Origin: Methylobacter sp.
GTDB lineage: Bacteria > Pseudomonadota > Gammaproteobacteria > Methylococcales > Methylomonadaceae
Assembly: GCA_030679035.1 (NCBI GenBank)
Contig: JAUXTH010000150.1
Location: 1 to 64,000, forward strand
Direction of reading: 5' to 3'
DNA: 64,000 nucleotides
The notes under the pieces were generated by a model that was not told the DNA's origin, made no database searches, and was given only the letters and a program-made list of their open reading frames with translations. Positions within the stretch are counted from its first letter, which is position 1; the number at the start of each line of letters is the position of its first letter. The translations under genes and the position numbers were made by a program. Shown here in pieces: positions 26,015 to 38,427 of the stretch.

Positions 26015-26030
26015 AGCAATGGCTATGCCA
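26015..26030 (-). promoter_or_regulatory. Sigma-54 promoter of nirBD-phzF
   Basis: On the minus strand TGGCAT-AGCCA-TTGCT matches the -24/-12 consensus (TGGCAC-N5-TTGCW) with one change, about 40-56 bp upstream of the nirB ATG. The leader is too short for ANTAR hairpins. An NtrC-like dyad lies about 110 bp upstream. Confidence 0.75.
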
Positions 26031-30245: not shown

Positions 30246-30821
30246 ATGAACGACTTAAAAGTATTGCTTATTGAAGATGGAACGGCAGACCAGTTATTGG
30301 GAAAAATACTGGTTTCTAAGGGCTATTCAGTCACCGGCACCGTAATGCTTGAAGGAAACATGCAATCCTTGGCGGTGAACAACAAAATCGACATTGTTAT
30401 CTTTAATATTGACAGCCCCAGAAAATATTTTCAGCACATCGATTTCCTTAGCCAGAATCATCCGCTGCCCATCATTATCTTTGCACCTGACGATACCGTC
30501 GACACCATCAATCAAATCGTTAAGGCCGGCGTCAGCGCCTATGTTGTTAATGGCCTGGAAACCGGTCGCATTGACAGCATCATCAATATCGCTGTGGCAA
30601 GATTTAAGGAACAGCAACGGCTTAAAACCGAATTGGAAAAAACAAAATCCAGGCTTGAAGAAAGAAAACTGATAGACCGGGCAAAAGGCATTTTAATCAA
30701 AACCCGCGGCTTTACCGAAGATGACGCTTATCACACCCTGAGAAAACTGGCGATGGATCGCAATATTGCCATCGGGGAAATGGCGAAAAACGTTATCGCT
30801 ATGGCGGAGCTGCTTAAATAG
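30246..30821 (+). CDS. nasT: NasT-like ANTAR-domain response regulator (antiterminator)
   Basis: A 191 aa protein with an N-terminal receiver-like domain (KVLLIEDGTADQLLGKIL; FNIDSP where the phospho-acceptor Asp would be) and a C-terminal ANTAR domain (about 130-188: RLEERKLIDRAKGILIKTRGFTEDDAYHTLRKLAMDR). NasT proteins bind a two-hairpin RNA in nas leaders and prevent intrinsic termination when nitrate releases them from the sensor NasS. No NasS gene is in the window. Matching RNA targets are present upstream of nrtA and of the EAL gene. It follows the kinase gene by 130 bp. Confidence 0.88.
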   Translation: MNDLKVLLIEDGTADQLLGKILVSKGYSVTGTVMLEGNMQSLAVNNKIDIVIFNIDSPRKYFQHIDFLSQNHPLPIIIFAPDDTVDTINQIVKAGVSAYVVNGLETGRIDSIINIAVARFKEQQRLKTELEKTKSRLEERKLIDRAKGILIKTRGFTEDDAYHTLRKLAMDRNIAIGEMAKNVIAMAELLK

Positions 30822-30839
30822 CCTTCCTTGGTATTTTAT

Positions 30840-30890
30840 CGTTCCCACGCACCGGCGTAGGAATGCAGTGTCAGACGCTCCAGCGTCGCC
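30840..30890. repeat. REP element, left copy flanking RAYT
   Basis: CGTTCCCACGCACCGGCGTAGG followed by AATGCAGT and a small hairpin GACGCTCCAGCGTC. An inverted copy is at 31451-31504 on the other side of the RAYT gene. Confidence 0.8.
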
Positions 30891-30891
30891 C

Positions 30892-31422
30892 TTACCACGA
30901 ATCGATGTCTATTAACCCCGCCAGCCCGGAATAATTAGCGGCGCTGGAATAGCGCCAATGCTCAGGCAAGTTCACATAACCGCGTTTTACAGGATTGGCA
31001 TGAATGTATTGCAACTTCTCTCGCATCATAGCCTCGCTAAATATCAGCTCGGCATGAACGCCTTCTTGCCAGAATTGATACTCTCGGTCTGTTTTATGCG
31101 CTCGCTTGTAAAAACGCAATCGTGTTAATAGCCTCTCGACATGCTGTGCCTGCAAACAATCGATAATTTGCCGCGCAGTATATGACTTGAAACTGTGCGC
31201 GCATTTATTCAAGTCTTTCGCTTGGGCAATAAAATGCAAATGGTTTTCTAAAATGACGTAACCGTAAAGTCGTAAGTCTTCGTGTTCCCGTTGGTAACGC
31301 CAACTATCGAGCACGATTTGCACGGTTTCAGTTCGCGTGAAAACTGGTAGCCACTCCAGTACTGTACAGGTCATAAAGTGAGGCCTACCGGGTTCTGTTA
31401 TCAGGTAACGGTTTCTGCCCAT
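30892..31422 (-). mobile_element. REP-associated tyrosine transposase (RAYT, TnpA-REP)
   Basis: A 176 aa Y1-transposase-like protein. ENHLHFIAQ (about residues 58-66) is the HUH metal-binding motif. The conserved downstream block ELIFSEAMMREKLQYIHANPVKRGYV contains the candidate catalytic Tyr (LQYIHANP), and WRYSSAANY is also typical of RAYTs. These single-copy domesticated relatives of IS200/IS605 transposases act on REP hairpins. The gene is bracketed by inverted REP copies a few to ~30 bp away, so the whole is a REPtron. It appears intact. Confidence 0.92.
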
Positions 31423-31450
31423 ATTGACTTTTAATGTTGAGGTTTAATGT

Positions 31451-31504
31451 GACGGGACGCTGGAGCGTCCCGAACTGCATTCCCACGCCGGAGCGTGGGA
31501 ACGA
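31451..31504. repeat. REP element, right copy flanking RAYT
   Basis: GACGGGACGCTGGAGCGTCC followed by the inverted CATTCCCACGCCGGAGCGTGGGAACGA. It is the inverted counterpart of the left REP and is better conserved as a hairpin. Confidence 0.8.
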
Positions 31505-31512
31505 TAAATGCT

Positions 31513-32598: not shown

Positions 32599-32647
32599 AA
32601 GACCGGATTGGTGCAATACCCTGAAAATAGCGCACCAAATCGATGCG
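32599..32647 (+). promoter_or_regulatory. Two NtrC-like dyads upstream of the EAL gene
   Basis: AAGACCGGATTGGTGCA (32599-32615) and CGCACCAAATCGATGCG (32631-32647). The second fits the 17-bp NtrC dyad well. The centres are 32 bp apart, almost the same spacing as the pair upstream of nrtA (31 bp), and surrounding bases are also similar. Confidence 0.6.
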
Positions 32648-32733
32648 TTGCAGCCGCCAATGCCAATAATCATGCCGCCGCTGGTACGAGCTATAACCGT
32701 TTAAATCGGGCAAATAAAACTTACCCCCGGCTT

Positions 32734-32749
32734 TGGCACATCGATTGCT
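32734..32749 (+). promoter_or_regulatory. Sigma-54 promoter of the EAL-chemoreceptor unit
   Basis: TGGCAC-ATCGA-TTGCT is a full match to the -24/-12 consensus, about 75-90 bp before the EAL start codon. The nrtA promoter has the same TGGCAC and TTGCT. Confidence 0.8.
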
Positions 32750-32763
32750 TTAGACAACACAGG

Positions 32764-32802
32764 GCTCCAGCGTCGGAGTGCTGCGGGTTCAATGACGAAC
32801 TC
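32764..32802 (+). promoter_or_regulatory. Dual-hairpin ANTAR-type RNA motif before the EAL gene
   Basis: Hairpin 1: GCTCC, loop AGCGTC, GGAGT. Hairpin 2: GGGTTC, loop AATGAC, GAACTC. Both loops are hexanucleotides with A at position 1 and G at position 4, the feature recognised by ANTAR proteins. They are transcribed from the sigma-54 promoter. Unlike nrtA, no T-run terminator is visible between hairpin 2 and the start codon 20 bp later, so any control may act on translation or beyond. Confidence 0.65.
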
Positions 32803-32822
32803 CTTAAACAACTCATATCGAT

Positions 32823-33995
32823 ATGAATCAAGAAAAAATACTATTCCCTTATTTTCAGCCTATTGTCGGCGCTGCCAGCGGCACTATCATCGGTTATGAG
32901 GCATTAGCCAGACAACATGATGCAGAGGGCAGGGTTATTTCGGCAGGCGAATTGTTTTCTTCCGCGGATATTGCGCCCGATCAATTGATAGCTTGGGATC
33001 GCATGGTTCGGCGGCAAGCCTTGGAGCAATTCAGTCAATCGAATTCCAACGGTTATTTAACGCTCAATATCTCGGCCGCCTGGATCGACCGGATCGCCGA
33101 CTTTAATTCATTGCCGACCCTGCTGATGCTGGACGAGTTCAATGTTGACAGAAGCCGCGTCATTATTGAAATAACTGAATCGAAAGGCGATCTGGACAAG
33201 CTCGTTGAAATTGCCGCCGTGTATCGCAGGCACGGCTTGAAAATAGCGATTGATGACTTTGGCGCGGGTTTTTCCCAGTTGGAAAGAGTCATGGCTATAC
33301 AGCCCGACATCATCAAACTGGATATGCAGTTATTCCAGAATGCAGCCAAAGGCGGCATCGCCAGCGATATAGTGCATTTGATATCCCGGCTGGCGAAACG
33401 CACCGGTTGTCGCATCGTTTGCGAGGGCGTTGAAACCGCTGAGGACTTCCATTTCGGCTTAAGCTGCGGCGCCCAATATATGCAAGGCTACCTGTTTTCG
33501 CCGGCCACTGCGGAGTTTAAACAGCCGCTGCATTATCAACAACAAATCAGCTCACTCAGAAAAACCTTCCTGAAAAAGACCTTAGCCACCGAAGAACACA
33601 AGATTCAGTTTATCGCCAACATTAAGAGCTTGATCGAACTGCTGAAAAAAGCCCTGGAAACTGACTTCAACCTCAATAAATTATCAGCACACCCGTTTGA
33701 GGAAAGCGGCGTTCTACGGTTTTATTTATGCAATAACGACGGCGACCAAATCTCCTCCAATTTTAATTTTGCCGATGCCAGATGGTTCGAGGATTCGACG
33801 CAACTCGGCTATAACTGGGCATGGCGACCTTATTTTTATCAATTGCTGGCGCTGGAATCGGCGCAAGACAGCTATCGCATTGTAACGTCTGAACGTTACC
33901 GCGATTTTAATACCGACATGCTTTGCAAAACCCTGTCGCTGAGACTGGACGACGAGCGTATTTTATTAATTGATATTGCTGCCGAATGGGTATGA
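32823..33995 (+). CDS. EAL-domain c-di-GMP phosphodiesterase with YkuI_C-like sensor domain
   Basis: A 390 aa cytoplasmic protein. The EAL domain (about 8-235) keeps the expected catalytic set: EAL in GYEALAR (26-28), Asn in TLNIS, EITES, IDDFGAG, IIKLDM, CEGVE and MQGYLFSP, so it should hydrolyse c-di-GMP. Residues ~240-390 (with LGYNWAWRPYFYQLLAL) resemble the PAS/PDC-like C-terminal domain of YkuI, a ligand-sensing module. No membrane segment. The start has a poor Shine-Dalgarno sequence. It is preceded by NtrC-like sites, a sigma-54 promoter and an ANTAR-type leader, and followed 58 bp later by a chemoreceptor gene. Confidence 0.9.
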   Translation: MNQEKILFPYFQPIVGAASGTIIGYEALARQHDAEGRVISAGELFSSADIAPDQLIAWDRMVRRQALEQFSQSNSNGYLTLNISAAWIDRIADFNSLPTLLMLDEFNVDRSRVIIEITESKGDLDKLVEIAAVYRRHGLKIAIDDFGAGFSQLERVMAIQPDIIKLDMQLFQNAAKGGIASDIVHLISRLAKRTGCRIVCEGVETAEDFHFGLSCGAQYMQGYLFSPATAEFKQPLHYQQQISSLRKTFLKKTLATEEHKIQFIANIKSLIELLKKALETDFNLNKLSAHPFEESGVLRFYLCNNDGDQISSNFNFADARWFEDSTQLGYNWAWRPYFYQLLALESAQDSYRIVTSERYRDFNTDMLCKTLSLRLDDERILLIDIAAEWV

Positions 33996-34053
33996 ATTGA
34001 GGCATTCGACCTGACCCAAGCCACCATCAACCCAAAATAAAGGGAAATACATC

Positions 34054-36435
34054 ATGCCAAATGGTATTAAAAACTCGAATCGATTAACCATCAAAATGCG
34101 TTTTATGGTTATTGTGGCTTCTTTAATTATCGGCTTTGCGTTATTCGGCTTTGCGACCTTTAAAGCGATGAATATGCTCAATGTTAACGGTCCAATTTAT
34201 CAACGTATTGTTCAGGGCAAGGATATTATTGCCGACGTGTTGCCGCCGCCTGAATATATTATCGAATCTTATCTGGTTGCGCTGCAATTGACCCAAGTCG
34301 GCGACCCTGATGAAATCAGTGCCTTAGTGACGCGTTTTCAGTCGCTAAAAACGGAATACGAGTCCCGTCATAGTTATTGGTTAGGGCAGTCTTTGGAATC
34401 GGAACTCCATGTTTCTTTGCTTGAGCGCTCCTACCGGGCGGCACAAACTTTTTATGATGAAGCCGGCCAGCGATTTCTGCCAAGCATTCAGGCGGGCGAC
34501 CGCGAAGGTTCTCAGGCCAGTCTGCTGCAAATGCGCCACGCTTATGAAGATCATCGACTCGCTATTGATGAGGTAGTCAAGTTTACAACAACTCGTAATG
34601 TAAAAGATGAGGCACAGGCGCTGACGACCATACACGGGTACAAAATCGTTTTGATCGGCATTTTTATATTCAGCGTTGCGGTGGCTGTCGTGCTGACTGC
34701 ACTGATCAGCCGCGGCATATTACGCTCGCTCAAAACTGTCCAACAGGTAGCAGGCGCCATTGCCGAGGGTGATCTGAACTCCAATATTGACACCCATCAA
34801 AGAGATGAGATTGGCGATCTTTTACGCTCCATGAAAGCCATGCAACAACAACTGCTGGAGCGCATCACGGCGGATCGCAAAGCGGCAGACGAAATTTTGC
34901 GCGTCAAGATTGCGTTGGATAACGTCAGTACCGGTGTAATGATTGCCGATAATGACCGCAACATCATTTACGCCAATAAATCGGTAATCAATATTCTCGG
35001 TAAGGCTGAAGCTGAAATTAGTCGGCAATTGTCAAAATTCTCTCTCAATGGCCTGGTCGGAACCAACATGGATGATTTTCACGAAGATCCCTCGCATCAG
35101 GCAAAAATGCTTAACTCCTTAGCCGGCAGCTATGAGGCCGCCATGCTGGTAGGCGGCCGCTCGATGGTAGTGCTCGCCAATCCGGTCATCAATGAACAGG
35201 GTCAACGACTGGGTACGGTGGCCGAATGGCATGACCGCACCGACGAGGTCATCGCGGAAAATGAAGTAGCCGCGATTGTCGGTGCCGCAGCGATGGGAGA
35301 TTTCAGCATGCGCTTCGACCTGGATGGCTAGGAAGGCTTTTTGCGTCATTTGGGCGAAGAAATTAATCGGCTTATGCACACCAGCGAAACCGGACTGAAA
35401 GAGGTGGTGCGCGTACTCGGAGCGTTGTCCCGTGGCGACTTAACAGAAGAAATTACCCATGATTATTACGGCACTTTCGGACAACTGAAAGATGACTCCA
35501 ATTCCACAGTAGAAAAACTTACAGCTATTATCAGCCAAATCAAGGATGCCACCGACAGCATTAACACGGCGTCTAAAGAAATTGCAGCAGGCAACAATGA
35601 CCTGTCGCACCGTACTGAACAACAAGCCGCCAGCCTGCAACAAACCGCCGCCAGCATGGATGAGCTGACCTCTACCGTGCAGCATAATGCCGCAAACGCC
35701 CAACAGGCAAACCGGCTAGCCGCTGATGCCTCGGACATCGCGGGCAAAGGCGTCGAAGTGGTCAACCAAGTTGTCATGACGATGAATGAAATCAATGAGT
35801 CTTCGCACAAAATCGGGGATATAATTTCGGTGATCGACGACATTGCTTTCCAGACCAACATTCTCGCCCTCAACGCAGCGGTAGAAGCCGCACGGGCAGG
35901 AGAGCAGGGCAGAGGCTTCGCCGTGGTGGCAGTGGAAGTGCGCAGTCTTGCGCAACGCGCCGCGACGGCTGCCGGAGAAATTAAAAACCTGATTAATGAT
36001 TCGGTCAATAAAGTCGTAGGGGGCAGTAAACTGGTTGCCCAGGCGGGTCAGACCATGGAAGAAATCGTCAGCTCCATCCATGGCGTTACAAACATAATGA
36101 GCGAAATCACCGCCGCCTCTTCTGAACAAAGTTCCGGCATCGAGCAGGTCAATCAAGCCATTACCCAAATGGACGATGTAACCCAACAAAATGCCGCCTT
36201 GGTAGAACAAGCCGCAACGGCAGCAGAATCACTGGAAGAGCAGGCGCAAAATCTGGTGGTCACGATGAGCAGTTTTAAGGTGGCCGGCAACCCGAGTAAC
36301 TCAGGCAGTTCTTTTTATGTGCCACCCGTTCGAAAGGAAATAGCACAAACCAAAACAACTGCCGTTAACGTTTTATCTATCCGCCAAAAATCACAGCTGC
36401 AAGCTGCTGGTATTGATGATTGGGAAGAGTTTTAA
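34054..36435 (+). pseudogene. Methyl-accepting chemotaxis protein gene with in-frame amber codon
   Basis: Two ORF-track entries (34054-35331 and 35341-36435) are one gene in one frame, interrupted only by TAG at 35329-35331 (LDG[14 protein letters not shown]). Before it: membrane helix (~13-33), periplasmic four-helix-type sensor, second helix (~190-210), HAMP and a PAS-like domain (IALDNVSTGVMIADNDRNIIYANK). After it: HAMP-like repeat and the full signalling tip ([32 protein letters not shown]). The usual Gly after AVVA is Val. The C-terminal DDWEEF resembles a CheR-tethering pentapeptide. The protein would be ~793 aa with readthrough; otherwise a receptor without signalling domain is made. 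Confidence 0.85.
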
Positions 36436-38254: not shown

Positions 38255-38270
38255 TGGCACAACGATTGCT
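38255..38270 (+). promoter_or_regulatory. Sigma-54 promoter of nrtABCD
   Basis: TGGCAC-AACGA-TTGCT is a full consensus -24/-12 promoter, ~158 bp before the nrtA start. The transcript would begin near 38281 and therefore contains the two ANTAR-type hairpins and the terminator. Confidence 0.85.
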
Positions 38271-38285
38271 CTAAACAATACAGAG

Positions 38286-38332
38286 GCTCCAACGATGGAG
38301 CGCTAAAAAAATAGGGGTTCAACGGCGAACCC
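38286..38332 (+). promoter_or_regulatory. Dual-hairpin ANTAR RNA motif in the nrtA leader
   Basis: Hairpin 1: GCTCC, hexaloop AACGAT, GGAGC. Hairpin 2: GGGTTC, hexaloop AACGGC, GAACCC. Both loops have A1 and G4, and the hairpins are separated by a 13-nt A-rich linker. This is the known target form of NasR/NasT-type antiterminators. It starts only a few bases after the predicted transcription start and is followed by an intrinsic terminator. Confidence 0.8.
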
Positions 38333-38343
38333 AAACAGACAAA

Positions 38344-38397
38344 GGCGTCTACCCGGCTGAATACTCCATGTATTCCGTAAGGTGACGCTTTTTTTTT
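38344..38397 (+). terminator. Leader terminator (attenuator) of nrtA
   Basis: GGCGTC-T-ACC pairs with GGT-GACGC, with an inner GAATAC/GTATTC hairpin, and is followed by nine T residues. It lies between the ANTAR hairpins and the nrtA start, so transcription would stop here unless the ANTAR protein acts. Confidence 0.8.
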
Positions 38398-38427
38398 GCT
38401 GATTTTTTCAAACCTGCTGAGGTCAAT

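What the first reader, a model, noticed from the sequence alone, without database searches (positions are those of the whole stretch)
32599..36435. NtrC/sigma-54/ANTAR-type control cassette in front of a c-di-GMP phosphodiesterase and chemoreceptor
Seen: two 17-bp NtrC-like dyads, a full TGGCAC-N5-TTGCT promoter, and two hairpins with six-base loops AGCGTC and AATGAC (A1 and G4 in both), then an EAL/YkuI_C-like gene and a chemoreceptor gene. Known: ANTAR proteins such as NasR/NasT bind paired hexaloop hairpins with A1/G4, and such leaders normally control nitrogen-metabolism or ethanolamine genes. Inference: nitrate or nitrogen status controls c-di-GMP turnover and taxis through the NasT-like protein encoded 2 kb away. 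There is no T-run terminator between the hairpins and the EAL start, and the start has a weak RBS, so the ANTAR protein may here act on translation. I know of no described case of an ANTAR RNA controlling an EAL gene.
Basis: partly seen in the sequence, partly recalled or inferred. Interest (0 to 1): 0.85.

Follow-up and report, generated by a model that had tools for sequence, protein, structure and literature searches.

The report
Nitrate-type RNA switch before c-di-GMP gene
In this methane-eating bacterium (Methylobacter), the gene for an enzyme that should break down the signal molecule c-di-GMP carries the same nitrogen-responsive promoter and paired RNA hairpins that stand before the nitrate-transport genes, so nitrogen supply probably also steers surface-or-swimming behaviour.

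Summary
Upstream of the EAL/YkuI_C gene (32823-33995) lie two NtrC-like dyads 32 bp apart, a perfect sigma-54 promoter (32734) and two A1/G4 hexaloop hairpins (32764-32802). A covariance model built only from nrtA leaders finds the EAL leader. Across Methylobacter its 34 credible hits precede only nrtA (17), EAL genes or paralogs (10), the chemoreceptor gene (6) and one EAL remnant; outside the genus only nrtA. In several relatives EAL and the chemoreceptor have full P1-P2-terminator leaders, so ANTAR targeting of both is well supported. Here the terminator and a nasT remnant were probably lost by a deletion between GAAC repeats. The hairpins survive in four separate lineages, with compensatory and wobble changes. 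Control by NasT is likely, but its mode (translation, stability) and sign are untested, and the hairpins could be a relic: other relatives lost them while keeping NtrC/sigma-54. Corrections: the chemoreceptor here has an in-frame TAG, and no NasS nitrate sensor was found. Nothing was tested in the laboratory.

The parts
32599..32615 (+). NtrC-like dyad 1 (AAGACCGGATTGGTGCA)
   Evidence: 9/12 letters of TGCACC-N5-GGTGCA; the core GGTGC-N14..20-GCACC is found exactly in 12 of 23 orthologous upstream regions and only twice in the 64 kb window, the other copy being inside nrtA
32631..32647 (+). NtrC-like dyad 2 (CGCACCAAATCGATGCG), 32 bp from dyad 1
   Evidence: inner half-sites 0.80 pairwise identity against 0.49 in the spacer
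32734..32749 (+). sigma-54 promoter TGGCAC-N5-TTGCT
   Evidence: perfect match; 2 in 64 kb against 0.16 expected; present in front of nearly all EAL orthologs of the genus
32764..32779 (+). ANTAR hairpin P1, GCTCC-AGCGTC-GGAGT
   Evidence: model R1 hit 32754-32807, 24 bits, E 1.7e-4 in the window; inner 4 bp and loop A1/G4 invariant in four lineages
32785..32802 (+). ANTAR hairpin P2, GGGTTC-AATGAC-GAACTC; its end lies 20 nt before the start codon
   Evidence: R1 hit; inner 5 pairs kept in four lineages with one G-C to A-U double change and G-U/U-G changes
32823..33995 (+). EAL + YkuI_C protein, predicted c-di-GMP phosphodiesterase, 390 aa
   Evidence: PF00563 E 3e-45, PF10388 E 3e-16; full-length relative of YkuI 2BAS
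34054..36435 (+). chemoreceptor (HAMP-PAS-MCP) with in-frame TAG at 35329-35331; conserved partner gene of EAL
   Evidence: EAL-MCP order kept in distant orthologs
30246..30821 (+). NasT-type ANTAR protein, 191 aa
   Evidence: PF03861 E 1e-19; orthologs in most genomes of the genus at 64% identity or more
38255..38398 (+). reference leader of nrtA: sigma-54 promoter 38255-38270, P1 38286-38301, P2 38315-38332, terminator about 38343-38398
   Evidence: sequence; R1 training member; weak match to Rfam narK RNA and Pseudomonas P11
38428..39828 (+). nrtA, nitrate-type ABC transporter binding protein
   Evidence: PF13379 E 1.7e-90

Best explanation
The EAL gene belongs to the nitrogen regulon of this Methylobacter. 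NtrC and sigma-54 switch on its transcription under nitrogen limitation. The first 60 nt of the mRNA hold a genuine ANTAR-type target RNA (P1-P2), homologous to the leader of the nitrate-transport operon in the same cluster, and the NasT-like protein encoded 2 kb upstream is its likely binder. In relatives the element is followed by an intrinsic terminator and should work by antitermination. In the window's lineage a deletion fused P2 to the sequence just before the EAL start, so attenuation is impossible and binding must act, if it acts, on translation initiation or mRNA stability. Shown by computation: promoter, homology, conserved structure, gene associations, terminator loss. Inferred: NasT binding, the signal (nitrate or nitrite), the sign and step of control, and the effect on c-di-GMP.
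For: A model from 16 nrtA leaders finds exactly two sites in the whole genome: nrtA (E 1.8e-20) and EAL (E 0.0125). Orthologous terminator-less leaders score higher: G012 46.3, G018 42.6, G013 28.4 bits. EAL leaders with terminator: G019 57.3, G021 46.3, G011 45.1, G017 38.4 (terminator weak or absent in G017); EAL paralogs of G018 and G013 53 and 33 bits; chemoreceptor leaders 47-53 bits in five genomes and 14.8 in a sixth. On EAL and chemoreceptor leaders kept out of training, 89.7% of cells are paired and the covariation score beats all 500 shuffles and all slid versions. In the four terminator-less lineages, which are separate branches with 34-42% change at fourfold sites, 18 of 22 core columns are invariant against 16 of 83 in the promoter-upstream spacer, p 9e-8. 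The G018 EAL1 leader matches its EAL2 leader minus 179 nt between two GAAC copies. All eight genomes with hairpins before an EAL gene carry nasT. rpoN and ntrC are present.
Against: About ten EAL orthologs have lost the hairpins, several in genomes that keep nasT, so this layer is dispensable. The window's own copy scores only 24 bits, about the level of a chance hit in coding DNA (G010 C97, 24.3 bits); its linker is short (5 nt). In G012 the P2 loop has one extra base. No NasS was found. P2 ends 20 nt before the start, so a direct block of the ribosome site is not obvious. No binding or expression data exist.
Confidence: 0.6

Rival explanations
1. Relic: the hairpins are a leftover of an ancestral ANTAR attenuator. 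Once the terminator was deleted they lost their job, and EAL is now controlled only by NtrC and sigma-54.
For: Terminator loss by deletion; complete loss of the hairpins in sister lineages with promoter and NtrC sites intact; one P2 loop enlarged (G012) and the lowest score in the window's own copy.
Against: Core positions conserved far above the spacer in four lineages with 34-42% fourfold-site change, with pairing-preserving changes in P2. Shared ancestry of the deletion form and constraint around the start codon could inflate this.
Confidence: 0.3
2. Decoy: the EAL leader RNA binds NasT without controlling EAL and tunes how much NasT is free for the nrtA leader, as proposed for sponge RNAs in ethanolamine systems (from my own knowledge, not checked here).
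For: Intact A1/G4 loops without any output element next to them; same sigma-54/NtrC type of promoter as nrtA.
Against: The element sits within 60 nt of a conserved, catalytically intact-looking EAL gene and in relatives the same leader carries a terminator in front of it.
Confidence: 0.07
3. Chance hairpins, or a copy of the nearby REP repeat (GCTCCAGCGTCG, 12 nt identical at 30877 and 32764), with no link to ANTAR RNAs.
For: 12-nt match to the repeat around the RAYT gene; fold energy not exceptional.
Against: Orthologous P1 in G018 is AACGGC-type as in nrtA and shares no such 12-mer; the model trained on nrtA leaders finds the orthologs at E down to 1e-10 and below; covariation.
Confidence: 0.03

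Closest known systems
NasS-NasT / NasR leader attenuators of nitrate assimilation genes (Klebsiella nasF, Paracoccus nasA, Pseudomonas)
   Same: Paired A1/G4 hexaloop hairpins at the start of the transcript, nitrate-assimilation cluster, NasT-type ANTAR protein nearby; the nrtA leader of the window is of this kind
   Different: Target is an EAL phosphodiesterase gene; terminator missing in this genome; NasS not found
ANTAR target RNAs without terminator (2012 prediction over a chemoreceptor start, PMC3369931; mycobacterial and actinobacterial RNAs that overlap the start site, PMC8164766)
   Same: P1-P2 close to the start codon, no terminator; one 2012 example also precedes a chemoreceptor gene
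   Different: Here P2 ends 20 nt before the start, the promoter is of the sigma-54/NtrC type, and related species show the form with terminator
Rfam narK RNA RF03032 and Pseudomonas P11 RF00625
   Same: Weak similarity to the window's nrtA leader, including the sigma-54 promoter letters
   Different: Below gathering score; the EAL leader matches narK at E 1.1 mainly through the promoter
YkuI of Bacillus (2BAS, 2W27)
   Same: Full-length similarity, EAL plus YkuI_C
   Different: Window protein has DDFGAG where YkuI has DNIGKE, so it looks catalytically intact

Membership tests
ANTAR target RNA | Two consecutive hairpins with six-base loops, A at loop position 1 and G at 4 | tested here: met
   Sequence, fold, blind scan; in G012 the second loop has seven bases
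ANTAR target RNA | Linker of 2-25 nt (PMC8164766) | tested here: met
   5 nt between the stems
ANTAR target RNA | Similarity to a clear ANTAR leader by covariance model | tested here: met
   24 bits in the window, 28-57 bits in orthologs, model from nrtA leaders only
ANTAR target RNA | Conserved pairing with covariation | tested here: met
ANTAR attenuator (antitermination type) | Intrinsic terminator downstream of or overlapping P2 | tested here: not met
   None before EAL in the window; present before EAL or the chemoreceptor in relatives
NasT regulon | NasT-type ANTAR protein in the genome | tested here: met
   30246-30821
NasT regulon | NasS partner that senses nitrate | tested here: not met
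   Only one PF13379 protein in the genome, and it is NrtA
NasT regulon | NasT binds this leader RNA | not testable with these tools
   Needs a gel shift
Sigma-54/NtrC promoter | TGGCAC-N5-TTGCW with NtrC dyads upstream; rpoN and ntrC in the genome | tested here: met
EAL phosphodiesterase | EAL domain with catalytic motifs EAL, N, E, DD, K, E | tested here: met
   Pfam match; motifs read by eye in the translation; activity not tested

The most novel reading that the evidence does not exclude
A nitrate-assimilation attenuator was recruited to a c-di-GMP phosphodiesterase and a chemoreceptor gene in Methylobacter, and in some lineages, including this one, a deletion turned it into a terminator-free ANTAR switch that controls translation, so that nitrogen source sets c-di-GMP level and taxis.
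Probability: 0.35. Interest if true: 0.75.

Novelty: new variant of a known kind. Interest (0 to 1): 0.6.

Why it matters
ANTAR RNA switches have been tied mostly to nitrogen metabolism itself. Here, across one genus of methane oxidisers, they stand in front of a c-di-GMP phosphodiesterase and a chemoreceptor that sit inside the nitrate cluster. That gives a concrete, testable wire from nitrogen supply to lifestyle (swim or settle) in bacteria that matter for methane budgets. The series of related leaders, from full attenuator to terminator-less to bare promoter, shows stages in the possible rewiring of an RNA switch.

Tried and rejected
Rfam gave no match above threshold anywhere in the window; the weak narK hit at the EAL leader rests mainly on the promoter letters. 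A REP-repeat origin of hairpin P1 was considered because of a 12-nt match and rejected on orthologous leaders. A coding origin was considered because the promoter region has an open minus-strand frame of 47 codons; orthologous spacers are only about 49% alike, so it was not pursued. Folding the four terminator-less leaders to find a common mechanism at the start codon gave no consistent picture: the start codon is paired in the window and G013, half open in G012, mostly open in G018. Hits of the model in G010 C97 and G003 C233 lie in coding DNA, and one in G097 in an unrelated context; they are taken as chance. A direct accession request for a Pseudomonas genome failed. The association of nasT presence with hairpins is only suggestive (p 0.07).

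Full report
WHAT IS THERE. The window belongs to a Methylobacter genome (handle G000, 4.79 Mb; nearest relatives by EAL identity M. tundripaludum and sister MAGs). Upstream of a 390-aa EAL/YkuI_C gene (32823-33995) lie two NtrC-like dyads at 32599 and 32631, 32 bp apart, and a perfect sigma-54 promoter at 32734. Only one other perfect sigma-54 match exists in the 64 kb, at 38255 in front of nrtA; shuffled sequence gives 0.16 on average. About 15 nt after the promoter comes hairpin P1 (32764-32779, loop AGCGTC), then 5 nt, then P2 (32785-32802, loop AATGAC), then 20 nt to the start codon. No Shine-Dalgarno and no terminator lie in between. Fold energy alone is not exceptional (z -1.26).

THE KEY COMPARISON. 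The nrtA leader in the same window has the same order: sigma-54 promoter, GCTCC-AACGAT-GGAGC, GGGTTC-AACGGC-GAACCC, then a clear terminator ending in nine T. This is the canonical form of a NasR/NasT leader (P1-P2 with A1/G4 hexaloops, PMC3369931, PMC8164766). From 16 such nrtA leaders of the genus I built a covariance model; no EAL leader was used. In the window it finds nrtA (88 bits) and the EAL leader (24 bits, E 1.7e-4); in the whole genome it finds only these two at E 0.1 or better.

ORTHOLOGS. Close EAL orthologs exist in 17 of 22 other genomes of the genus. Three states of the leader are seen. (a) P1-P2 without terminator directly before EAL: the window, G012, G018 and G013 (24 to 46 bits). 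(b) P1-P2 further upstream, with terminator (G019 = M. tundripaludum SV96, G021, G011; not clear in G017), then in G019 and G011 a remnant of the 3' end of nasT, then EAL (38 to 57 bits); likewise EAL paralogs in G018 and G013. (c) No recognisable hairpins but a sigma-54 promoter, mostly with NtrC sites: about ten genomes. In addition the chemoreceptor gene itself has a sigma-54-P1-P2-terminator leader in G019, G021, G011, G006 and G001, and a degenerate one in G010. Genus-wide, 34 hits are credible: 17 nrtA, 10 EAL or EAL paralog, 6 chemoreceptor (the G010 one only at 14.8 bits) and one EAL remnant in G018; two further weak hits lie in unrelated coding DNA and are chance. In other genera of the family the credible hits precede nrtA only. 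Such a distribution is hard to get by accident.

STRUCTURE UNDER CONSTRAINT. In 15 EAL and chemoreceptor leaders outside the training set 89.7% of pair cells are standard pairs, against 42-51% for slid versions; 12 cells have double changes and the covariation score beats all 500 shuffles. Relatedness can inflate such counts. The four terminator-less leaders are on separate, poorly resolved branches of the EAL tree and differ at 34-42% of fourfold sites. Their P1 inner stem and the A1/G4 positions of both loops are invariant, P2 keeps five inner pairs through one G-C to A-U double change and wobble changes, and loop positions 2, 3, 5 and 6 vary. Core columns: 18 of 22 invariant against 16 of 83 in the spacer, p 9e-8. 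The 20 nt before the start are also conserved (15 of 20), so part of the signal could reflect the translation start.

HOW THE TERMINATOR WAS LOST. G018 carries both forms. Its EAL1 leader corresponds to its EAL2 leader with 179 nt missing between two GAAC copies, one in the 3' arm of P2 and one in the nasT remnant. In G019 and G011 the remnant matches the last 28-30 residues of NasT at 63-64%. Inferred: a repeat-mediated deletion removed the terminator and left P2 fused to the EAL start region.

GENE CONTEXT. The cluster nirB - nasT - EAL - chemoreceptor - DUF - GAF - nrtABC is kept in much of the genus, with rearrangements. EAL followed by a chemoreceptor is kept in orthologs with only 62-66% EAL identity, and a sigma-54-like promoter precedes many of them. 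So the pair is functionally linked and probably nitrogen-controlled beyond the genus; the ANTAR layer is seen only within the genus.

MECHANISM. Established for other bacteria: NasT is freed from NasS by nitrate or nitrite, binds the leader and allows read-through (PMC3795266, PMC6759348). In this genome rpoN, ntrC and nasT are present, but the only PF13379 protein is NrtA, so the signal that governs NasT is open. Without a terminator, antitermination cannot operate at EAL. P2 ends 20 nt before the start codon, at the edge of the ribosome footprint; folding gave no consistent picture for the start codon. Translational or stability control is therefore an inference, with precedent in actinobacteria (PMC8164766). 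The relic reading remains a serious rival because several relatives with nasT have lost the hairpins.

THE PROTEIN. The EAL protein matches YkuI (2BAS) over its full length, but keeps DDFGAG where YkuI has DNIGKE, and the other catalytic motifs are present by eye, so phosphodiesterase activity is likely. The chemoreceptor in this assembly is interrupted by TAG at codon 426; 11 relatives read through to 725 aa or more, so here it may be a pseudogene or an assembly error.

LITERATURE. No paper in the held library links ANTAR RNAs to an EAL gene (limited library). A putative ANTAR RNA over the start of a chemoreceptor gene was shown in Figure S3 of PMC3369931 (species not given in the text I could read).

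Noticed in passing
35329-35331: In-frame TAG splits the chemoreceptor gene 34054-36435; none of 11 relatives has a stop there. Pseudogene or assembly error.
   Followed up: partly
30835-31508: A RAYT-type transposase gene (30892-31422, minus) flanked by 53-nt inverted REP-like arms sits between nasT and the membrane protein gene upstream of EAL; it was not found at this place in the relatives checked.
   Followed up: no
26015-26030 (minus): Sigma-54 promoter with one mismatch (TGGCATAGCCATTGCT) in front of nirB, without an ANTAR leader; similar sites precede nirB in many relatives. The listed TTG start of nirB is probably too far upstream.
   Followed up: no
L093:6200-6330, also L094 and L095: In G019, G021 and G011 the first roughly 35 codons of EAL are duplicated in tandem, giving an N-terminal extension (open frame 429 aa or more).
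   Followed up: no
30246-30821 and whole genome G000: NasT without NasS: only one PF13379 protein in the genome. G004 has a divergent nasT beside a second PF13379 gene, a likely true NasS-NasT pair.
   Followed up: partly
L104:4453-4885: G018 has a decayed extra copy: ANTAR leader with terminator followed by a C-terminal EAL/YkuI_C fragment.
   Followed up: no
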